Both the position numbers and the translations under genes were made by a program. Below, piece by piece: positions 186 through 9,456 of a stretch of DNA of 9,489 bases. Each line of letters starts with the position of its first letter. The stretch's first letter is position 1. The DNA is from Pseudomonadota bacterium. GTDB taxonomy: Bacteria > SAR324 > XYD2-FULL-50-16 > JAHJRI01. The notes under the pieces were generated by a model, which did not search any database, was not told where the DNA came from, and was given only the letters and a program-made list of their open reading frames with translations. Where the stretch lies: the NCBI GenBank assembly GCA_022360105.1, contig JAKSDL010000767.1, positions 1 to 9,489 on the forward strand. Direction: 5' to 3'.

Positions 186-920
186 ATGAGGATTACAGCC
201 AAAATTGTTGATATTGCGGAATTAAACAACAGACAAATCCGTAATATGTATGCGCTGATGAATAAATACTATGAGAATATCAGCTGGCAGACCTTTCAAG
301 CGGATCTCATGGAAAAGCAGCATATGGTGCTAATTCAGGATTCACATTTGGATGAGGACGAGATAGGAGGATTCAGTACGCTGAAAACGGTTGATCTTCA
401 GGTGGAAAATCAACAGGTTAAGGGTATTTTTTCCGGTGATACCATAATAGATAAAAGCTGTCGGGGAGGAGTTGTATCCCAAGTAGAATTTTTGAAATAC
501 CTATTGTCGTTGAAACGATGGGAGTATCCAAATGAAGCCGTTTATTGGATATTGATTTCCAAAGGCTATAGGACCTATCGGCTGATCAGGAGCTATTTTT
601 CCAAATCATATCCAAATGTTTTTGAGCAAACTCCACTTTTTGAAAAGGCGCTGATCGACAATTTTGGTAGTCTCGTCTACCCAGGCTGCTTTAGTGCTGA
701 TAAAGGGGTAATCTGTGCCAGTCGTACCAAGGACTACTTGAAGAATGCACAAGGCGAAATCACCCCGAGAAAAAGGGAAAATCCGGATATTAGCTATTTC
801 CTGGATATTAATCCGGGATATCACAGGGGCGATGAACTTGTGTGCGTGGCCGAAGTCAGCATGCAGAATCTGACGAAAACCGGTTATCGCCTGGTCAAAA
901 GGTATCTTGAGTATAATTAG
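186..920 (+). CDS. GNAT-like protein, putative acyltransferase of unknown function
   Basis: The 244-residue product looks soluble, with no signal peptide or membrane segment. It resembles an uncharacterised bacterial family that I associate with the N-acyltransferase (GNAT) fold. Visible hallmarks are a central strand ending in the motif F-S-G-D-T (residues 82-86), followed by I-I-D and a C-R-G-G turn (92-95). A second conserved stretch, V-Y-W-I-L-I-S-K-G-Y-R-T-Y, spans 119-131. In the fold, R-G-G would fall where acyl-CoA phosphates are usually held; this is inference. The ATG at 186 is the first start in frame after the upstream stops and gives a natural beta-strand opening (MRITAKIVDI). 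It is the first gene of a co-directional cluster, 206 bases before the GH3 gene. A role acylating the substrate or product of the GH3 and radical SAM enzymes is plausible but unproven. Being coding is near certain; the fold is moderately supported; the reaction is unknown. Confidence 0.8.
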   Translation: MRITAKIVDIAELNNRQIRNMYALMNKYYENISWQTFQADLMEKQHMVLIQDSHLDEDEIGGFSTLKTVDLQVENQQVKGIFSGDTIIDKSCRGGVVSQVEFLKYLLSLKRWEYPNEAVYWILISKGYRTYRLIRSYFSKSYPNVFEQTPLFEKALIDNFGSLVYPGCFSADKGVICASRTKDYLKNAQGEITPRKRENPDISYFLDINPGYHRGDELVCVAEVSMQNLTKTGYRLVKRYLEYN

Positions 921-1042
921 CAGCCGATTGATACACACTTTATTTATGTAGTCTGACAAGGAGCCAACCTGCCGTTATTTGCGACTTGATAGTGGAGAAG
1001 GTTTTCTGTTTTCATTTTAAACCTGAGTAATTGTTCCTCGGA

Positions 1043-1067
1043 CTGATAACTGATAACCAAAAAAAAA
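1043..1067. repeat. 7-bp tandem duplication followed by A9 tract, upstream of GH3 gene
   Basis: The heptamer CTGATAA occurs twice head to tail (1043-1049 and 1050-1056), followed by CC and nine A residues (1059-1067). It sits in the only intergenic gap above 100 bases between genes. It could be part of a promoter or leader for the GH3-to-rSAM 4 unit, since A-tracts often lie upstream of promoters or start codons in A/T-rich leaders, or it could be chance. No paired -35/-10 elements were convincing. Confidence 0.3.
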
Positions 1068-1126
1068 CGAGTTAAAAGCCTGTGTTTGGCCTCCAAACCC
1101 TAAAACGTGCGTTAAATAATTCCAAT

Positions 1127-2821
1127 ATGATCTCTGAATTTCTCAGCTGTTTAAAATCTAACCTGGCAGGGAGCCTTTGGTCGTTTTTGTGTCGACGGGA
1201 ATCAAGACGATTTTTTCAGCGTGTGAATGAAGTGGAGAAAACTCAGGAAAATGTGTTGCTCAAGATGCTTCAATCAAATGCTGACACGGTGTTCGGGAAA
1301 AGGTATGGCTTTTCGGAAATTAAAACCATCCGGGAATACCAGGAAAAAATTCCCATATCCGATTACGAAGGCCACAAAGTATGGATAGACCAGCTGGCTT
1401 CAGGTATTAACAACCTGCTGACCAAAGAGCAGGTAATAATGTTTGAACCATCCAGCGGCTCAACTTCTGCTGCCAAGCTAATACCTTACACCGGAAGCCT
1501 TAAGGCAGAGTATCAAAAAGGTTTGAAGGTCTGGATTTACGACCTGGCAACACGTATTCCCGGATTGTTTCGTGGAAAGTCTTATTGGTCCATATCTCCG
1601 GTAGTTAAGCAGAATCAAAGAACACCCGGGGGGACACCGATCGGTTTTGAAGAGGATGGTGAATATTTGGGCAAAATTCAGAAAGTTATTTATGACAGCC
1701 TCCTGGCTGTGCCGGTCGAGGTAAAGTATATTAACAGCAGGGAGTCTTTCAGGTATGTGTCATTGCTTTTTTTACTGAAAACCAAAAACCTTAGTTTTAT
1801 TTCCGTCTGGAATCCTACATTTTTTGAACTGCTGGTCGATCAGCTACTGATTGATCAAGAGCGTTTACTCCATGACCTGGAGTATGGCCATATTTCCATT
1901 GATCTGGATGTTGTACCGGAAAACTATATGTCGATCCTGCAGGCAAAACTGGGAAGAAATATAAAACGAGCAGTCGAACTCAGGGAAATATTGGCAAAAA
2001 CGCCGGGAGAAATAAACTATGCCGCAATTTGGCCTAATCTGAAAGGAATCAGCTGTTGGGCTTCCGCCAACGCAAAGCCCTATGCTGAAAGACTGGCGCA
2101 GAAATTCCCCAAGGCCAGATTGCAGGGAAAAGGACTTTTGGCAACCGAAGGGATAGTAACCATTCCCTTGTCCGGTAAAACGGGAAATGCCCTGGCTTTT
2201 TGTTCACACTTTTATGAGTTTATTCCTGTCAATACATCCTCACAGGAAGTAAAAACCGCAAGTCAGTTAACGTCAGGCGAAACCTATTCAGTTATGATTA
2301 CAACTGGTGGTGGCCTGTATCGTTATCGTTTGTTTGATTTGGTCAAAGTGAAAGGCTTTGAAGGAAGTTGCCCATTGCTCGAATTTGTTGGTAAGGAGGA
2401 TAAAATTTCCGATTATTTTGGAGAAAAACTAAATGAGCAATTTGTTGCCGAAGTTCTGCAGGAAACCTTTCAATCCATTAATGCAGAGTTTCCCTTTTTC
2501 ATGCTGGCTCCTGAAACCGCTACTGATGGGGAGTTTTTCTACACACTTTTCCTTGAGGCAGGAGAAACATTCCCTACCACCGGTCTTTCCAGACTTGGAG
2601 TTCAGGTGGAACACAGACTAAAGAAAAACTATCACTACAATTACTGTCGGGACCTGGGGCAGATCAAAGCATTGCGCATTTTCAGAATAGAGGGGCAAAA
2701 TGGAGAACAGTCCTATCTCAAGGCCTGTGAGCAATCCGGTCAACGATTGGGAGATATCAAGCCGGTCGTGCTGCATCCAAAAACGGGTTGGTCATCTGTG
2801 TTCACAGGAAAATATATCTAA
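1127..2821 (+). CDS. GH3 family acyl-acid-amido synthetase-like adenylating enzyme
   Basis: The 564-residue protein matches the GH3 (auxin-responsive promoter) family in length and motif order. GH3 enzymes belong to the acyl-adenylate-forming superfamily: they activate a carboxylic acid with ATP and transfer the acyl group to an amine, usually an amino acid. The N-terminal helical region carries the family signature D-T-V-F-G-K-x-Y-G-F. Nucleotide motif 1 is seen as S-S-G-S-T (residues 109-113) before K-L-I-P-Y-T, motif 2 as A-T-E-G (339-342), and motif 3 as Y-R-Y-R-L-F-D-L-V-K-V with Asp404. A small C-terminal domain follows. An upstream GTG at 1082 would add 15 residues. I prefer the ATG at 1127 because bacterial GH3 proteins usually begin just before this helix and neither site has a Shine-Dalgarno. 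Bacterial GH3 acyl and amine substrates are mostly unknown, and plant-type auxin conjugation should not be assumed. Its place before four radical SAM genes suggests that it makes an amide or activated acyl intermediate for them. Confidence 0.9.
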   Translation: MISEFLSCLKSNLAGSLWSFLCRRESRRFFQRVNEVEKTQENVLLKMLQSNADTVFGKRYGFSEIKTIREYQEKIPISDYEGHKVWIDQLASGINNLLTKEQVIMFEPSSGSTSAAKLIPYTGSLKAEYQKGLKVWIYDLATRIPGLFRGKSYWSISPVVKQNQRTPGGTPIGFEEDGEYLGKIQKVIYDSLLAVPVEVKYINSRESFRYVSLLFLLKTKNLSFISVWNPTFFELLVDQLLIDQERLLHDLEYGHISIDLDVVPENYMSILQAKLGRNIKRAVELREILAKTPGEINYAAIWPNLKGISCWASANAKPYAERLAQKFPKARLQGKGLLATEGIVTIPLSGKTGNALAFCSHFYEFIPVNTSSQEVKTASQLTSGETYSVMITTGGGLYRYRLFDLVKVKGFEGSCPLLEFVGKEDKISDYFGEKLNEQFVAEVLQETFQSINAEFPFFMLAPETATDGEFFYTLFLEAGETFPTTGLSRLGVQVEHRLKKNYHYNYCRDLGQIKALRIFRIEGQNGEQSYLKACEQSGQRLGDIKPVVLHPKTGWSSVFTGKYI

Positions 2822-2827
2822 AACTCA

Positions 2828-2873
2828 ATAGTGGTCATAAAAGGCTTTAAGTGCCAACCAGATCATCCACTAT
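2828..2873. repeat. Weak inverted repeat between GH3 and rSAM 1
   Basis: ATAGTGG (2828-2834) is the exact reverse complement of CCACTAT (2867-2873), separated by 32 bases. This occupies most of the 69-base gap between the two genes. The stem is only 7 bp, the loop is long and no U-tract follows, so an intrinsic terminator is unlikely. It could be an operator-like dyad or a coincidence. Confidence 0.2.
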
Positions 2874-2890
2874 AATGGTGATTCAATATC

Positions 2891-4222
2891 ATGAAAATCT
2901 TACTGGTATTAGCTAAAGGTCAGCTCCACCGGTTGCGTGCGGGGCCTGTTAACATATCTTTCAGAGAAGCCCCGTTAACGGCTACCATGTTGGCCGCTCT
3001 GGTGCCGAAAGAATTAAATGCTTCCGTTAAAATAATCGACGAAAGTGTCAGCAAGATTCCGTTTCATGAAACTTTTGATGTGGTAGGAATCAGCATTCTA
3101 ACCGGGACGTCTATTCGGGGATACCAAATTGCGGACAGGTTTCGAGAAAGGAACACAACCGTTGTATTAGGGGGCATTCATGTTACCTTGATGCCCGATG
3201 AAGCCAGGAAACATGCGGATAGCATCATCACCGGTTTTGCCGAAAAAACCTGGCCTCAGTTGCTGTACGATTTTAAAAACGGGCAACTGAAACCCGAATA
3301 CCATGATCCGGTAGGTACTATCCAAAATCTGCCCCTGCCCAGAAGAGATCTTCAAAAACGCTTTGGTTACATGGCCCCCAATACTGTCTTTGCAACCAGG
3401 GGATGCAAGGGGCGATGTGATTTCTGTAGCGTGGTAGCCGGAAATTACGGTTGGTATAAAAGACCTGTCGGAGAAGTTATCGACGCAATAAAACAATCAA
3501 AAAGGCGGCTGGTTGTGTTCAACGATGTTAATCTGACAGAAGATGTTGACTATGCAAAAGAGTTGTTTTCGGCAATGATTCCTTTAAAAAAACAGTGGGG
3601 AGGATTGGCTTCCACTGTTATCGGTCAGGACGACGAATTGCTGAATCTGATGCAGAAAAGTGGTTGCTGCTATATATTATTTGGATTCGAAACCATTGAT
3701 AACGCCAGTTTACGAGGAATCAAGAAAGGGTTTAACAAGTTTGAGCATTACAAACTGGTAGTGCGGAAGATGCATGAAAAGAATATCGTGGTTCATGGAT
3801 GTTTTATTTTCGGGATGGACGGAGATACCCTCGAAACCTTTGATCAGACAGTGGAAGCCATTCTGGATTTAAGAATCGATATTCCCCGATTTGCCTTGCT
3901 CACACCATATCCCAAAACTGCCCTTTTTAATCGATTGAAAGCCGAGAATCGCCTGTTGCATCAAAACTGGCAGTATTACGACACCCAGCACGTTGTCATC
4001 AAACCAGGTAAAATGACTCCATACGAGTTGGATGTGGCATTTAAAAAGGCTTTCAAGGATACTTTTTCTTTTAAACACATCGGCCATCGTCTTAAAGGTG
4101 CCGGAAGAAATAAAATTATCTCCATGATGGGCAATCTGGCGTACCGAAAATACGTCCACAGACTAATGAACGATAAAGACCGATTTCCAGTAACGTTTTC
4201 CGCAGATGAAATCAAAAACTGA
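2891..4222 (+). CDS. B12-binding-type radical SAM enzyme, divergent member (rSAM 1)
   Basis: This 443-residue protein has an N-terminal cobalamin-binding-type Rossmann domain (about 1-130), a radical SAM barrel (about 160-360) and a C-terminal extension of the DUF4070 type. The first domain shows the I-D-E strand end and the G-G-I-H-V-T-L-M-P-D-E loop. The [4Fe-4S] ligands are C172-x3-C176-x2-C179 within R-G-C-K-G-R-C-D-F-C-S. The following strand carries F-N-D-V-N (210-214). Late in the barrel is T-P-Y-P-K-T-A-L-F-N-R-L, the family's P-x-P-x-T-x-L-x-x-R-L element. No DxHxxG lower-ligand motif is present. It differs from the three downstream paralogs: it lacks their M-E-P-L and D-D-R-V-E motifs, and Q-Y-Y-D replaces their Trp-Trp pair. 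It probably acts on a different substrate position or catalyses a different step. The ATG at 2891 opens directly on beta-strand 1 (MKILLVLAKG). Its leader has no strong ribosome binding site. Methylation or another radical reaction is possible; the product is unknown. Confidence 0.92.
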   Translation: MKILLVLAKGQLHRLRAGPVNISFREAPLTATMLAALVPKELNASVKIIDESVSKIPFHETFDVVGISILTGTSIRGYQIADRFRERNTTVVLGGIHVTLMPDEARKHADSIITGFAEKTWPQLLYDFKNGQLKPEYHDPVGTIQNLPLPRRDLQKRFGYMAPNTVFATRGCKGRCDFCSVVAGNYGWYKRPVGEVIDAIKQSKRRLVVFNDVNLTEDVDYAKELFSAMIPLKKQWGGLASTVIGQDDELLNLMQKSGCCYILFGFETIDNASLRGIKKGFNKFEHYKLVVRKMHEKNIVVHGCFIFGMDGDTLETFDQTVEAILDLRIDIPRFALLTPYPKTALFNRLKAENRLLHQNWQYYDTQHVVIKPGKMTPYELDVAFKKAFKDTFSFKHIGHRLKGAGRNKIISMMGNLAYRKYVHRLMNDKDRFPVTFSADEIKN

Positions 4223-4307
4223 CTCGACTGGCTGAAGGTGCCAAAAAGAGGGTATTGATTTAATGCCTTATCAAAGCCTATGCAAAATAAACTGTAGAAT
4301 GTAGCCG

Positions 4308-5414
4308 ATGGAATCAGAAATAACCCTCAGGGTTGCGAACCAAGCGGATAACCAGATGTTATGTGATCTGGCGCGAAACTCAGTTATGTCTGGTGTGCTG
4401 GATGTGGTTTACGCCCGTGATCCCGATTATTTTCACGGGCTTAACATCCAGGGAAAAACCAACCATGTGTGCATCTTTGAGAAAGACAAGAAAATGGTTG
4501 CTATGGGGAGTCGCTGTATGAAACCGGTCTATGTTAACGAAGAGAAAAAAGTCGTCGGTTATTTAAGCGGGCTTCGTGCTGTCAAACGGTTACGAGGTGG
4601 TGTGACAGGACCCATTTTTAACCTTCTGAAAGTTCACCATCAGCAGGAGTTTGCACCAATTTATATCAATACCGTTATCGACAACAACAAACTCGCCCTT
4701 AACAGCCTGACCGGAAAGCGACCGGGTATGCCAAATTATGTAGATTTTGGAGCTTATACAACCCATCTTCTGGTTTTTAAAAATCAGACTATGTCTACTG
4801 GCGATGATAATCAACTTTCGCTTATAAGAGGATCTGAATCCACCCTTGGAGAAATTGTTCAATTTATAAATCGTGTTGGAAAAGCAAAACAATTCTTTCC
4901 GGTCTATGAACGAAATGATTTTAAAAGTGCTTACACGCGTGGATTCAAGGCGGATGATTTTTATGTAGCCATAAAGCAAGATTCCATCGCAGGAGTGATC
5001 GGAAAGTGGGATCAAGCAGAATTCAAACAGAACATTATTACAGGCATTCATTGGGAGTGGATCAAGGAAAAGCTTGGTAGTACTGTGAATTTTGACATTG
5101 CTGACTACAAAAACCTGGTGGTAATGAATAAACCGATAAAATCCTTCTACCTGAGTTTTGTGTGCATTGAAAATAATGATCCAAAAGTCCTGAGGTTCCT
5201 TATCGACAAGGTTTTGGGTGAACACATGAATTCCGGATATCAATACTGCGTGATCGGTTTTCATACGCAAGACCCGTTGAGGGAAGCATTGAAGGGGCTT
5301 GCCACAATTGACTACACAAGCAGATTGTTTCTTGTCTGTTGGGAAGAAGGATTGCCTTACCTTGAATCCCTGAATCATCAACTGGTCCCTTACTTGGAAA
5401 CTGCAGCTCTCTAG
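4308..5414 (+). CDS. GNAT family N-acyltransferase-like protein
   Basis: The 368-residue protein begins with a typical GNAT opening (E-I-T-L-R-V-A-N-Q-A-D-N) that leads into helix 1. The acyl-CoA-binding motif A region is visible as G-Y-L-S-G-L-R-A-V-K-R-L-R-G-G (residues 84-98), where the last arginine and glycines would form the pyrophosphate loop. Further on, Y-I-N-T-V-I-D-N-N-K-L-A-L-N-S-L resembles the asparagine-containing segment seen late in GNAT domains. The remaining residues, from about 160, probably form a second, degenerate GNAT-like lobe, a common arrangement at this length. The acceptor and acyl donor cannot be read from the sequence. The gene interrupts the radical SAM series, 85 bases after rSAM 1 and 14 before rSAM 2. 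That spacing argues for co-transcription and a role in the same pathway. A 263-codon antisense open frame over it is judged a shadow. Confidence 0.82.
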   Translation: MESEITLRVANQADNQMLCDLARNSVMSGVLDVVYARDPDYFHGLNIQGKTNHVCIFEKDKKMVAMGSRCMKPVYVNEEKKVVGYLSGLRAVKRLRGGVTGPIFNLLKVHHQQEFAPIYINTVIDNNKLALNSLTGKRPGMPNYVDFGAYTTHLLVFKNQTMSTGDDNQLSLIRGSESTLGEIVQFINRVGKAKQFFPVYERNDFKSAYTRGFKADDFYVAIKQDSIAGVIGKWDQAEFKQNIITGIHWEWIKEKLGSTVNFDIADYKNLVVMNKPIKSFYLSFVCIENNDPKVLRFLIDKVLGEHMNSGYQYCVIGFHTQDPLREALKGLATIDYTSRLFLVCWEEGLPYLESLNHQLVPYLETAAL

Positions 5415-5428
5415 CTTATCTAACCCCG

Positions 5429-6727
5429 ATGCATATTACCTTTATTCGTCCCAACATGTTTGATGAGAGGCAAGGGGATGCCATGGAACCCCTGGCATTT
5501 TCCATTCTGGCTTCACAAACACCTACAGGTATTACGACTGCCCTGTTCGATGATCGTGTTGAAGAGATCGATTTTAACCAGTCGACGGATCTGGTGGCTA
5601 TTTCTGTTGAAACATTTACAGCAAAAAGATCGTACGCTATAGCCGACACATACCGACAAAAGGGAGTTCCGGTGGTTATGGGGGGATATCATCCTACTTT
5701 TTTGCCCGACGAATGTCTGGAACACGCTAATGCTGTGGTCATTGGCGACGGGGAGCGGGTCTGGAAACAGGTTATTCAAGATGTGCAAAACGATTCATTG
5801 AAAAAGAAGTACCAGCAGCCGTTGACAGATGTTTCAGGGTTGACTTTTTCTAGAGAGATTTTCCGGGGGAAAAAATACAACAAAATCACTCCTATTCAAT
5901 TTGGAAGAGGCTGCAAATTTCACTGCGATTTTTGCTCCATTCGAGCCTTTTACGGAGACACTCTGCTCTCAAGGCCTATCAATGAAATAGTTTCGGAGAT
6001 TCAGGCATCCAACCGAAAACTATTTTTTGTCACGGATGACAATATTTTTTCCAATAAAACGAGGGCAAGAGAATTGTTTCAGGCCCTGGTACCATTGAAG
6101 ATCAACTGGCTTTGCCAGGTAAGTATCGATGTGGCCAGGGATGAATCGCTACTCAAGCTAATGAAGGAAGCGGGCTGCGTGGCTGTGATAGTTGGGTTTG
6201 AATCGCTGAAATCTCAAAGCCTTACACAGATGAACAAAACGATCAATTCAAGTATTAACTATCAAACCGCCGTTGCTAAAATCAAAGCTGCGGGCCTGAT
6301 GATTTTTGGTACTTTTGTTTTTGGATACGATTCGGACACGACAGAGATGTTTGAAAAAACCCTGGAATTTGCCCTGGATTCGAAACTGCTGATCGCACAA
6401 TTCAACCCGTTGATGCCCATGCCGGGAACTCCATTATATGAGAGACTGAAACAGGAAAACAGGCTGCTTTACGACAAATGGTGGCTCGATCCAAAATTTA
6501 AATGGGGGGAAGCCATGTTCAAACCCAAAGGCATGACAGCAAAAGAGCTCTCAGAGGGGTGCAAAAACATTCGCGAGAGGTTTTATAGCTACCAATCCAT
6601 TTTCAAACGTTTGTTTGATTCAAAAGGAAACGCAGCCAGTCTCAGAAATATGTTTGTGTACCTGTTGATAAATTGGGTCTCTAAGCGTGAGGTACAAAGA
6701 AAAACAGGTCGGGCTCTTAACAGCTGA
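5429..6727 (+). CDS. B12-binding-type radical SAM enzyme, tandem paralog (rSAM 2)
   Basis: This 432-residue enzyme is the first of three adjacent, closely similar radical SAM proteins. Its N-terminal cobalamin-type domain contains M-E-P-L (19-22), F-D-D-R-V-E-E-I-D and D-L-V-A-I-S-V-E-T-F-T-A, then M-G-G-Y-H-P-T. The cluster ligands are C162-x3-C166-x2-C169, followed by the T-D-D-N strand (D203, D204, N205). The late barrel element is P-G-T-P-L-Y-E-R-L (from P332). The C-terminal extension carries W351-W352-L-D-P, then F-K-P-K-G-M-T and a Y-S-Y-Q-S-I-F-K-R-L segment, matching DUF4070-type tails. Such enzymes usually cleave SAM and use a methylcobalamin-type cofactor for C-methylation, though BchE-like members perform other radical chemistry. 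No DxHxxG is seen, so any cobalamin would need another lower ligand or none. It starts 14 bases after the GNAT-like gene with no Shine-Dalgarno, suggesting an operon. The ATG at 5429 aligns with the paralogs' beta-strand 1. Confidence 0.93.
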   Translation: MHITFIRPNMFDERQGDAMEPLAFSILASQTPTGITTALFDDRVEEIDFNQSTDLVAISVETFTAKRSYAIADTYRQKGVPVVMGGYHPTFLPDECLEHANAVVIGDGERVWKQVIQDVQNDSLKKKYQQPLTDVSGLTFSREIFRGKKYNKITPIQFGRGCKFHCDFCSIRAFYGDTLLSRPINEIVSEIQASNRKLFFVTDDNIFSNKTRARELFQALVPLKINWLCQVSIDVARDESLLKLMKEAGCVAVIVGFESLKSQSLTQMNKTINSSINYQTAVAKIKAAGLMIFGTFVFGYDSDTTEMFEKTLEFALDSKLLIAQFNPLMPMPGTPLYERLKQENRLLYDKWWLDPKFKWGEAMFKPKGMTAKELSEGCKNIRERFYSYQSIFKRLFDSKGNAASLRNMFVYLLINWVSKREVQRKTGRALNS

Positions 6728-6742
6728 AAAAACAAATTTTCC

Positions 6743-8110
6743 ATGAAAATAATCTTAATCAAACCAAATATCGGGCGCAAAGAACACAGTCTTTTTGTTG
6801 ATGAAGCCAGGATGGAGCCTTTGCAACTCGGGGTGATCGCAGGTTTAACCCCCGAAAGTCATGAAGTTCTGCTTTATGACGATCGAGTTGAAGCAATCAA
6901 CTATGATCAACCGGCGGACCTGGTGGGGATCACTGTGGAGACTTTCACGGCAAGGAGAGCCTATGAAATTGCGTCGGCATACAGGGATCGGGGAGTACCT
7001 GTTATCATGGGGGGTATGCATGCCACCCTGATTCCGGAGGAAGTGGCGGATTATGCCGATTCGGTTTACGTGGGGGATGCGGAACATCTCTGGGGTGAAG
7101 TACTTGATGATCTTTCCCGGGGAAAACTTAAACCGCTGTACAAGGCGAAAGGGGGAATTCCCCAAATCAAGTCGTTACCAAAGCGAGATCTGTTCGCAGG
7201 AAAAGGTTATTTACCCCTCTCCTTACTGCAGTTTACCAGGGGCTGTCAGAATTCATGTACTTTTTGTGCAACCAGTGCTTTTTTCAAGCAAAAGTATTAT
7301 CACAGGGAGGTGAATGATGTTGTTAAAGAGATTGTTGAGCAACAGCTCAAGCTACTGTTTTTTGTGGATGACAACATTATCTGCGACCACGAAAAAGCCA
7401 AAGAGTTGTTTCGTGCCTTAATCCCTTTAAAAATCAAATGGGTCAGTCAGGCCAGTCTTGACCAGGTAAAAGATCCGGAGTTGATGTCATTAATGATAAA
7501 AAGTGGTTGTGTAGGAAATGTAGTCGGATTTGAGTCGATTAATCCCAGCAACATGCTGGTTTCGAGAAAAGGACCAAACATCAACCGATCCCACAATTAT
7601 GAAGATGAAATAAAAACCCTTCACCAACACGGTTTACAGACCTGGGCTGCTTTCACCCTGGGGTATGATGAGGATACGGTTGAACATATCAGGCAGACAA
7701 CTAAATTTGCCCTCAGACATAGATTTACCTGGGCCGCCTTTAATATTTTAATGCCTTACCCGGGAACACCACTGTATTCAAAGCTGGATCTGGAGCAACG
7801 GCTGTTATATGACAGGAAATGGTGGCTGCATCCGGAATACCGGTTTAATCACGCGGCGTTCCTGCCAAAAGGGATGACTCCGGAAGAGTTGACTGAAGCA
7901 TGTTTTAAAGCCAGATCGCGTTTCAATAGCATTGGATCTTTGATCAAACGATTCTTCAATTTTAAAACCAATTTAAAATCTCTATCCAGCATATTGATCT
8001 ATTTGACTTATGCCAGGTTGTTCAGGAAGGAAACCTTTAAAAAACAGGGAATGTTTTTTGGGTACACCGATAAAAAAATCACAGAATTTCAAAAACAACA
8101 AGGTGTTTGA
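6743..8110 (+). CDS. B12-binding-type radical SAM enzyme, tandem paralog (rSAM 3)
   Basis: The 455-residue protein shares the full architecture of its two neighbours: Rossmann domain with M-E-P-L (24-27), Y-D-D-R-V-E-A-I-N-Y, V-E-T-F-T-A-R-R-A-Y and M-G-G-M-H-A-T; barrel cluster C168-x3-C172-x2-C175; D209-D210-N211 strand; P-G-T-P-L-Y; and W360-W361-L in the DUF4070-type tail. The sequence around the cluster differs (R-G-C-Q-N-S-C-T-F-C-A). Mid-barrel it has F-E-S-I-N-P-S-N-M-L, followed by a longer R-K-G-P-N-I-N-R-S insertion than rSAM 2. These differences fall where the substrate pocket would be expected, so a distinct substrate or position is likely (inference). The C-terminus is extended by about 20 charged residues after the shared tail. 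The ATG at 6743 follows rSAM 2 by 15 A/T-rich bases with no Shine-Dalgarno and aligns with the other paralogs' starts. Confidence 0.93.
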   Translation: MKIILIKPNIGRKEHSLFVDEARMEPLQLGVIAGLTPESHEVLLYDDRVEAINYDQPADLVGITVETFTARRAYEIASAYRDRGVPVIMGGMHATLIPEEVADYADSVYVGDAEHLWGEVLDDLSRGKLKPLYKAKGGIPQIKSLPKRDLFAGKGYLPLSLLQFTRGCQNSCTFCATSAFFKQKYYHREVNDVVKEIVEQQLKLLFFVDDNIICDHEKAKELFRALIPLKIKWVSQASLDQVKDPELMSLMIKSGCVGNVVGFESINPSNMLVSRKGPNINRSHNYEDEIKTLHQHGLQTWAAFTLGYDEDTVEHIRQTTKFALRHRFTWAAFNILMPYPGTPLYSKLDLEQRLLYDRKWWLHPEYRFNHAAFLPKGMTPEELTEACFKARSRFNSIGSLIKRFFNFKTNLKSLSSILIYLTYARLFRKETFKKQGMFFGYTDKKITEFQKQQGV

Positions 8111-8118
8111 CTTTAAGA

Positions 8119-9456
8119 ATGAAGATAACATTTATCACTCCGGCTATCGGCAAGAGAAAAGGTAAAAAATACATAAAATCATGGCGGATCATGGAACCGC
8201 TGACTATTGCCACCCTGAAAAGTTTGACTCCTCAGGATGTAGAGACCGAGTTCTTTGATGATCGGGTTGAACTGATTGACTATAATACGAGAACTGACCT
8301 GGTGGCGATTACCGTTGAAACCTATACTGCTTATCGAGCCTATTCAATCTCTGCCGAATTTAGGAAAAGAGGCGTTCCGGTGGTGATGGGTGGTTATCAT
8401 GCCACGATTATGCCTGATGAAGTAGCTCAACATACAGATGCTGTGGTGGTGGGAAATGCCGAATCGATTTGGCAGACTGTCTTGCGTGATGCTGAGAATA
8501 AGACTCTTCAGCCAAGGTATTTCGGGGCACAGGAATACTCAAAATCTTTACCGGATAGATCAATTTTTAAAAATAAAAAATACTCCCCCATGGGATTGGT
8601 GGAAACCGGAAGAGGTTGTATCTTTCAATGTGATTTTTGCGCGATTACCAGGTTTTATCACAAACAATATCATCCACGACCTGTGGAGCAGATCGTGGAT
8701 GATGTGAAATGTTCAGGAAAAAAGTTTTTTTTTCTGATTGATGATAATATTGTGGCCAATCCTCAGTATGCGATTGAATTGTGCAAAGCCTTGGAACCAT
8801 TGAAAATAAAATGGACCAGCCAGGGAGCCCTGACCATGGCGAACAATCCTGAATTGCTGAAATGGTTGAAAAAAAGTGGTTGTGACATTTTGTTAATCGG
8901 ATTTGAATCTCTTGAGCCGGAGAATCTTAAATCAATAAATAAAGATTGGGCATCCAGACTGGGGGAACAAAACGAGTTAATTGAGACAATACATTCAGCT
9001 GGAATCAGCATTTATGCAACATTTTTATTTGGGTTGGACCACGATACACCAAGTGCTTTTGAAAATGCTGTCCAATTTTCGAGTCAACACGGATTCTATT
9101 TCGCTGCTTTTAATCATGTCACTCCTTTTCCGGCAACACCCCTTTACGAAAGATTGCTTGGTGAAGGAAGAATGATAAAAGAAAAATGGTGGTTGGATCC
9201 CACTTACACTTACGGTGCCTTGCCATTTCATCCCAAAAAAATGAGCTTTGAAAAAGTGGGGGAAGAGTGTGCAAAGGCCAGAAGAACCTTTTTTAGCTAT
9301 CGTTCCATCCTGAGCCGTTGGTGGAAGTTGTTAAAAAGAAATATGAATCCCCTGGTCAGTCTTATTTTCCTGAACTCCAACATCATGCTGCAAAAAGAGG
9401 TGGATCAGCGCATGGAATTGCCTATTGGTATCAATTTGGATGAATTACCAAAATAA
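8119..9456 (+). CDS. B12-binding-type radical SAM enzyme, tandem paralog (rSAM 4)
   Basis: This 445-residue enzyme is the last of the tandem set. The N-terminal domain shows M-E-P-L (25-28), F-D-D-R-V-E-L-I-D-Y, V-E-T-Y-T-A-Y-R-A-Y and M-G-G-Y-H-A-T. The [4Fe-4S] ligands are C167-x3-C171-x2-C174, followed by I-D-D-N (D208, D209, N210). The PGTP element of the paralogs is changed to P-A-T-P-L-Y-E-R-L. The tail has W357-W358-L-D-P-T-Y-T-Y-G and F-F-S-Y-R-S-I-L-S-R. I chose the ATG at 8119 because it aligns with the paralogs' first residue. A TTG at 8107 would add four residues and overlap the rSAM 3 stop. The chosen start is 8 bases after that stop, suggesting translational coupling. Like the others it lacks DxHxxG. 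The reaction is unknown; C-methylation or another B12-radical SAM step on the shared product is the leading idea. Confidence 0.93.
   Translation: MKITFITPAIGKRKGKKYIKSWRIMEPLTIATLKSLTPQDVETEFFDDRVELIDYNTRTDLVAITVETYTAYRAYSISAEFRKRGVPVVMGGYHATIMPDEVAQHTDAVVVGNAESIWQTVLRDAENKTLQPRYFGAQEYSKSLPDRSIFKNKKYSPMGLVETGRGCIFQCDFCAITRFYHKQYHPRPVEQIVDDVKCSGKKFFFLIDDNIVANPQYAIELCKALEPLKIKWTSQGALTMANNPELLKWLKKSGCDILLIGFESLEPENLKSINKDWASRLGEQNELIETIHSAGISIYATFLFGLDHDTPSAFENAVQFSSQHGFYFAAFNHVTPFPATPLYERLLGEGRMIKEKWWLDPTYTYGALPFHPKKMSFEKVGEECAKARRTFFSYRSILSRWWKLLKRNMNPLVSLIFLNSNIMLQKEVDQRMELPIGINLDELPK

What the first reader, a model, noticed from the sequence alone, without database searches (positions are those of the whole stretch)
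186..9456. Uncharacterised GH3 / GNAT / four-radical-SAM gene cluster
Seen: seven co-directional genes, with short gaps in the second half, encode a carboxylate-activating GH3 protein, two GNAT-like proteins and four cobalamin-type radical SAM enzymes. Known: GH3 proteins make acyl-amides through acyl-adenylates; B12-radical SAM enzymes methylate unactivated carbons or remodel rings; GNATs transfer acyl groups from acyl-CoA. Inference: together they could build and decorate an amide-linked small molecule or lipid. I cannot match the set to any known pathway, and the usual NRPS/PKS carrier domains or a precursor peptide are absent from the window.
Basis: partly seen in the sequence, partly recalled or inferred. 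Interest (0 to 1): 0.75.

Follow-up and report, generated by a model that had tools for sequence, protein, structure and literature searches.

The report
Conserved seven-gene amide-lipid operon, uncharacterised
Seven neighbouring bacterial genes, including an amide-bond maker, two acyl-transfer-like enzymes and four vitamin-B12 radical enzymes, form a conserved set that also sits complete on a Citrobacter plasmid and probably makes an unknown fatty amide molecule.

Summary
In detail: seven co-directional genes encode a GNAT-fold protein (A), a GH3 ligase (B), a tandem-GNAT protein (D) and four B12-type radical SAM enzymes (C, E, F, G). A Citrobacter portucalensis plasmid carries all seven as reciprocal best matches in one tight operon, A-GH3-C-G-D-E-F. 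Among 282 Myxococcota genomes, close relatives (E<1e-100) of C and of F occur in the same five, all A-positive. GH3 lies within about 6 kb of A in 15 of 21 A-positive genomes; the 18 A-linked GH3s tested and the window's lie apart from 8 of 10 unlinked ones. D's model resembles N-myristoyltransferase to the last residue, where that enzyme has its catalytic carboxylate. Loci without the radical enzymes often hold Rieske proteins or fatty-acid desaturases. Best reading: a biosynthetic operon for an N-acylated lipid or fatty amide tailored by B12 radical chemistry. Product, substrates and step order are unknown. I found no published description.

The parts
186..920 (+). A: GNAT-fold protein, 244 aa; probable small N-acyltransferase
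1082..2821 (+). B: GH3 amide ligase, listed as 579 aa from a GTG; the true start may lie further in
   Evidence: PF03321 and PF23571 above cut-off; aligns with solved plant GH3 enzymes, best E 1.9e-18; the database record is 518 aa
2891..4222 (+). C: B12-type radical SAM enzyme, C-type
   Evidence: PF04055 and PF02310 above cut-off; C-type set 100/99 in the tree
4308..5414 (+). D: tandem-GNAT, N-myristoyltransferase-like protein, 368 aa
5429..6727 (+). E: B12-type radical SAM enzyme, E-type
   Evidence: PF04055, PF02310 and PF13282 above cut-off; E-type set 92/92
6743..8110 (+). F: B12-type radical SAM enzyme, F-type; 59% identical to the Citrobacter copy
   Evidence: PF04055 and PF02310 above cut-off; F-type set 100/99
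8107..9456 (+). G: B12-type radical SAM enzyme, G-type
   Evidence: PF04055 above cut-off, PF02310 just below; G-type set 86/81

Best explanation
The seven genes are one biosynthetic operon for an N-acylated (amide-linked) lipid or fatty amide. Inferred mechanism: GH3 (B) activates a fatty or modified carboxylic acid with ATP and joins it to an amine, as OlsH does with ornithine; D, an N-myristoyltransferase-like tandem GNAT, moves a long acyl chain from a thioester onto an amine, with its own C-terminal carboxylate as base; A is a second, smaller N-acyltransferase; the four B12 radical SAM enzymes act on unactivated carbons of the acyl chains or head group (methylation, ring closure, coupling or dehydrogenation). 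Shown: the gene set, its recurrence, family membership of B, C, E, F and G. Predicted: the folds of A and D. Inferred: substrates, order, lipid nature and every single reaction.
For: Complete set in one operon on a Citrobacter plasmid, seven of seven reciprocal best matches, followed after 6 nt by a PAP2 phosphatase and, on the other strand, by a fifth B12-type radical SAM gene and a gene annotated fatty acid desaturase. GH3 near A in 15 of 21 A-positive Myxococcota genomes. Close relatives of C and of F in the same 5 of 282 genomes, all A-positive. GH3 tree split 100/98. D: NMT-like to the last residue, shared C-terminal end in 29 of 29, catalytic C-terminal carboxylate in NMT. A GH3 enzyme making N-acyl ornithine from free fatty acid is published (PMC12493201). 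Lipid-type neighbours: fatty-acid desaturases, a fatty-acid hydroxylase, DUF3419 plus a methyltransferase in one operon with C, G, D and A.
Confidence: 0.5

Rival explanations
1. The operon makes a small secreted amide (a signal or defensive compound) with short or aromatic acyl parts; the radical SAM enzymes modify the amine or ring part, not a lipid chain.
For: Plant GH3 enzymes, the nearest solved relatives, act on small acids (names); A's fold matches are with small-substrate acetyltransferases; B12 radical SAM enzymes of antibiotic pathways score in the same range as the lipid ones; MFS and efflux genes flank A, GH3 and D in L118.
Against: Fatty-acid desaturases, a fatty-acid hydroxylase and a PAP2 phosphatase recur as neighbours; D resembles an enzyme of long-chain acyl transfer.
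Confidence: 0.25
2. Two modules that merely travel together: an A-GH3-D amide module and an independent radical SAM module.
For: A, GH3 and D occur together without these radical SAM genes in many loci; an E-F pair lies apart from C and G in G138 and G229.
Against: Close relatives of C and of F were seen in 5 of 282 genomes and in each case with A; D and the radical SAM genes interleave in the window and in one tight operon on the plasmid.
Confidence: 0.12
3. A lipopeptide (RiPP) pathway: D acylates a side chain of a small precursor peptide and the radical SAM enzymes modify the peptide.
For: A tandem GNAT, NpuN, puts long acyl chains on a lysine of a lanthipeptide (PMC13060382, passages); some B12 radical SAM enzymes mature RiPPs, and models such as ApyD score weakly.
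Against: No + strand ORF of 20 aa or more inside the A-GH3 gap, and the other gaps are at most 85 nt; no gene annotated as a precursor within the Citrobacter run. RiPP models score far below their cut-offs. DNA beyond the window is not held, so a distant precursor is not excluded.
Confidence: 0.08

Closest known systems
OlsH/OlsI ornithine-lipid pathway of Singulisphaera acidiphila (PMC12493201; abstract, section 8 and part 1 of section 9 read)
   Same: A bacterial GH3 enzyme makes an N-acyl amino acid, the first step of an aminolipid
   Different: B is far below the OlsH model (64.7 against 620 bits); no radical SAM, NMT-like or A-type gene is named in the parts read; the acyltransferase there, OlsI, is an alpha/beta-hydrolase
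Eukaryotic N-myristoyltransferase
   Same: Tandem GNAT fold over almost the whole length of D, ending at the same C-terminal residue
   Different: About 11-13% identity; no Pfam NMT match in D; a mycobacterial tandem GNAT is tied; substrate unknown
BchE, HpnJ and ladderane-type (TIGR04072) B12 radical SAM enzymes
   Same: Among the better-scoring curated models for C, E, F and G; B12-binding plus radical SAM layout
   Different: Best score 127.1 against a cut-off of 481.35; no curated cut-off is reached
Selidamide / nostolysamide tandem GNAT NpuN (PMC13060382, passages)
   Same: A bacterial tandem GNAT that transfers long acyl chains to an amine
   Different: It works in a lanthipeptide cluster with a precursor peptide; none was seen here; no sequence comparison with NpuN was made

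Membership tests
GH3 acyl-acid amido synthetase (B) | GH3 domains above Pfam cut-off | tested here: met
   PF03321 181.8 and PF23571 66.7 bits, both cut-offs 23.6; PF23572 22.1, just below its cut-off
GH3 acyl-acid amido synthetase (B) | ATP-dependent amide formation | not testable with these tools
   Needs an assay
OlsH lyso-ornithine lipid synthetase (B) | NCBIfam equivalog NF052613 cut-off of 620 bits | tested here: not met
   64.7 bits
B12-type radical SAM enzymes (C, E, F, G) | Radical SAM domain with CxxxCxxC | tested here: met
   PF04055 above cut-off in all four; motif in all four
B12-type radical SAM enzymes (C, E, F, G) | N-terminal B12-binding domain above Pfam cut-off | tested here: inconclusive
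   Met in C, E and F; G 29.0 against 32.1
BchE, HpnJ, TIGR04072 (ladderane-type) | Curated equivalog cut-off | tested here: not met
   Best scores 127.1 of 481.35, 102.8 of 577.6 and 86.2 of 360, all for E
N-myristoyltransferase (D) | Tandem GNAT fold ending at the catalytic C-terminus | tested here: met
N-myristoyltransferase (D) | Sequence match to the Pfam NMT families | tested here: not met
   None in D; 1 of 29 members, NMT_C at E 0.024. So 'works like', not 'is a member'
GNAT superfamily (A) | GNAT fold | tested here: met
GNAT superfamily (A) | Acyl-CoA or acyl-ACP binding | not testable with these tools
   No sequence family match in A; 2 of 61 members weakly match PF13527
RiPP cluster (selidamide type) | Precursor peptide gene in the cluster | tested here: inconclusive
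   None inside the A-GH3 gap or annotated within the Citrobacter run; DNA beyond the window end is not held

The most novel reading that the evidence does not exclude
A transferable pathway for a new class of amide lipid: an N-myristoyltransferase-like bacterial enzyme and a GH3 ligase assemble a bis-acylated amine, and four successive B12 radical SAM enzymes fuse, cyclise or branch its chains, doing without oxygen what Rieske enzymes and desaturases do in relatives of the same A-GH3-D core.
Probability: 0.2. Interest if true: 0.85.

Novelty: new variant of a known kind. Interest (0 to 1): 0.62.

Why it matters
It defines a testable biosynthetic unit of seven genes that recurs from a metagenomic bacterium and Myxococcota to an enterobacterial plasmid typed mobilizable. 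It gives bacterial GH3 enzymes, which are numerous (3217 matches) and mostly unassigned, a recurring partner set; it proposes an N-myristoyltransferase-like acyltransferase in bacteria; and it offers four related B12 radical SAM enzymes that look like parts of one pathway.

Tried and rejected
Own genome: none held. The genome-contig scan gave one locus. Viral contigs: no relative of F. E. coli genomes: no near match to the Citrobacter cluster; plasmids: only that plasmid. Treponema and Acetoanaerobium plasmid matches to F at 32% were not taken as orthologues. Ladderane, BchE, HpnJ and RiPP filings were rejected on curated cut-offs. A sphingolipid-like reading was dropped: the L001 gene is a glycine C-acetyltransferase by NCBIfam and the L039 aminotransferase passes none of the cut-offs shown. 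Membrane-spanning lipid synthase was considered (PMC13274423, passages); no sequence comparison could be made. The ladderane genome paper (PMC2649909) was seen in three passages. Fold families absent from the VIA rows are not excluded. A search for 'bacterial ceramide synthase' with two other terms returned no paper. The first GH3 tree lacked L035 (too short), L073 and L074 (reason not examined); one search includes them and the three plasmid-record loci, and is the tree cited. Dropped before counts: the 9 of 28 A-positive genomes with E above 1e-15; in the tree the L042 pair (near copies of L041), the cut G-type gene of L046 and the distant L061 gene at 2885-4573. The E<1e-100 limit for C and F was set after seeing a gap in the results (next F match 1.5e-75, next C match in another genome 3.0e-80), and both calls scored only the best five or six candidates of a genome. 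Gene calls come from a home-made caller that missed known genes (A in L037, L043, L044 and L045; GH3 in L044, L045, L062 and L075); tblastn or the genome search placed those.
Full report
OBSERVATION. The window holds seven co-directional ORFs from 186 to 9456. I call them A (186-920), B (1082-2821), C (2891-4222), D (4308-5414), E (5429-6727), F (6743-8110) and G (8107-9456). The gaps are 161, 69, 85, 14, 15 and -4 nt. There is no tRNA, no Rfam match, and no terminator-like site on the + strand between genes (the + strand sites listed lie inside genes). B is a GH3 protein; C, E, F and G carry a radical SAM domain with CxxxCxxC and a B12-binding domain, that of G just below Pfam's cut-off. DUF4070 passes its cut-off only in E.

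THE PLASMID COPY. A search of 72,556 plasmid records with A gave 12 records. One, plasmid NZ_CP134684.1 of Citrobacter portucalensis (source Larus michahellis; typed mobilizable, IncFIB, IncFII), carries A-GH3-C-G-D-E-F in one run with gaps from -8 to 6 nt. All seven are reciprocal best matches to the window's genes among the eight Citrobacter proteins compared: A 26%, GH3 32%, C 42%, G 43%, D 21%, E 46%, F 59%. D is the weakest (E 1e-8 by BLASTP; 172 bits with the D-family profile). RefSeq names them hypothetical protein, GH3 auxin-responsive promoter family protein, radical SAM protein (four) and N-acetyltransferase. Next come a PAP2-family phosphatase and a hypothetical gene, then on the other strand a fifth B12-type radical SAM gene and a gene annotated fatty acid desaturase. 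Near-identity searches found the cluster in no other plasmid record and in none of the 5,426 E. coli genomes.

MYXOCOCCOTA. The one locus from the genome collection (L001; Myxococcota by the label) led to a phylum search. A matched 28 of 282 genomes, 19 of them at E below 1e-15. These 19 plus two reached through D (G286, G290) make 21 genomes. GH3 lies within about 6 kb of an A gene in 15 of the 21. In the other six, G069, G171 and G286 have GH3 on other contigs, and G114, G259 and G269 show none at E 1e-20. G178 has a second A gene with no GH3 near it. A rough expectation is 0.003 such pairs per genome. In a GH3 tree of 35 rows, the 18 A-linked GH3s (15 from Myxococcota, three from plasmid records), the window's and six database relatives lie on one side of a branch with support 100/98, and 8 of 10 unlinked Myxococcota GH3s lie on the other. 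The two exceptions come from G171 and G286, which carry A-D-C-G without an adjacent GH3. Against this, G069, a close relative of G171, shows only a GH3 of the other branch; its assembly may be incomplete. The context of the six database relatives is not known.

THE RADICAL SAM GENES. C matched 57 of 282 genomes at E 1e-40, but five at E below 1e-100: G069, G114, G138, G171 and G229. F matched seven of 282 at E 1e-70, and the same five at E below 1e-100. All five carry A. The 1e-100 limit was set after seeing the gap in the results. The chance of five of five is 8e-7 by the hypergeometric with 19 A-positive genomes, or about 3e-4 if they count as three lineages; kinship of A itself is not corrected for. 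In G069 and G171 the order is C-G-D-A. In G138 it is A-C-G-D beside a divergent GH3; in G229 A-C-G is cut by the contig end and a D gene lies on another contig. G138 and G229 each hold a tandem E-F pair at another place. The radical SAM tree of 24 rows gives a C-type set (100/99), an F-type set (100/99), an E-type set (92/92) and a G-type set (86/81), each with one window and one Citrobacter member. E and G are only moderately supported, and the second gene of G114 is not placed within them.

NEIGHBOURS THAT SPEAK TO FUNCTION. In the 20 loci compared, a Rieske protein family is present in 8 (Pfam-checked in L032 and L036); it is also in L061 (Pfam) and L064 (by clustering). B12 radical SAM genes of the C and G types are in L041, L042, L043, L046 and L061; of these loci only L061 showed both kinds, and L043 and L046 are short. 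Fatty-acid desaturase genes adjoin D in L036, L049 and L064, and one lies in L032; a fatty-acid hydroxylase is in L033. In G286 (L061) a LysR gene is followed by C, G, D, A, a DUF3419 protein (336.7 bits), a methyltransferase and a Rieske protein, the genes from C on overlapping or nearly so. DUF3419 is, from recall, the family of BtaA, the first enzyme of betaine-lipid synthesis; the papers were seen as a listing only. In the record labelled A. baumannii X4-300, the run is MFS, A, GH3, outer-membrane efflux protein, D, SurE, which does not point to lipids.

EXPLANATION. The best reading is one biosynthetic operon for an N-acylated lipid or fatty amide (confidence 0.5). OlsH shows that a bacterial GH3 enzyme can make an N-acyl amino acid from free fatty acid without ACP or CoA (PMC12493201: abstract, section 8 and part 1 of section 9 read), though B is not OlsH by its curated model. 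D and A would add further acyl groups. The four B12 radical SAM enzymes would tailor unactivated carbons; their nearer curated models (BchE, HpnJ, ladderane-type) include ring-forming and lipid-linked enzymes, but none is met. I infer, without data on the hosts' use of oxygen, that they do in some hosts what Rieske enzymes and desaturases do in others; L061, with both, shows that this is no strict exchange. Substrates, order and product are unknown. Rivals: a small secreted amide (0.25), two modules that merely travel together (0.12), a lipopeptide (0.08).

NOVELTY. Five searches of the held papers (open-licence PubMed Central only) found no description of the set: one search gave only the OlsH paper, none, one unrelated paper, and searches gave other lipid and natural-product papers, seen as listings except where cited above. 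Each enzyme family is known; the set and its product are not, as far as these searches reach. I rate it a new variant of a known kind.

Noticed in passing
L122:17271-19513: Downstream of the Citrobacter operon, on the other strand, a fifth B12-type radical SAM gene, nearest to C (37%), next to a gene annotated fatty acid desaturase.
   Followed up: partly
L001:4095-11464: A and GH3 bracket ferritin-like, 399-aa unknown, 2Fe-2S ferredoxin, Rieske and hexapeptide genes; the same gene families recur in L033, L039 and L040, a different tailoring set with the same core.
   Followed up: partly
L032:8438-11293: A large protein with RnfD-like membrane and FG-GAP/UnbV repeat parts follows D; relatives are in L034 and L035.
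   Followed up: no
L118:9923-15903: In a 3.97 Mb record labelled a plasmid of Acinetobacter baumannii, A-GH3-outer membrane efflux-D-SurE; by its size the record looks like a chromosome.
   Followed up: no
L047:4846-9366: A SPASM-type radical SAM gene, not of the B12 type by Pfam, precedes D, A and GH3.
   Followed up: no
   Followed up: no
L089:2051-7845: In G229 a further C-like radical SAM gene (39%) shares a contig with a D relative (30%), perhaps a second, divergent cluster.
   Followed up: no
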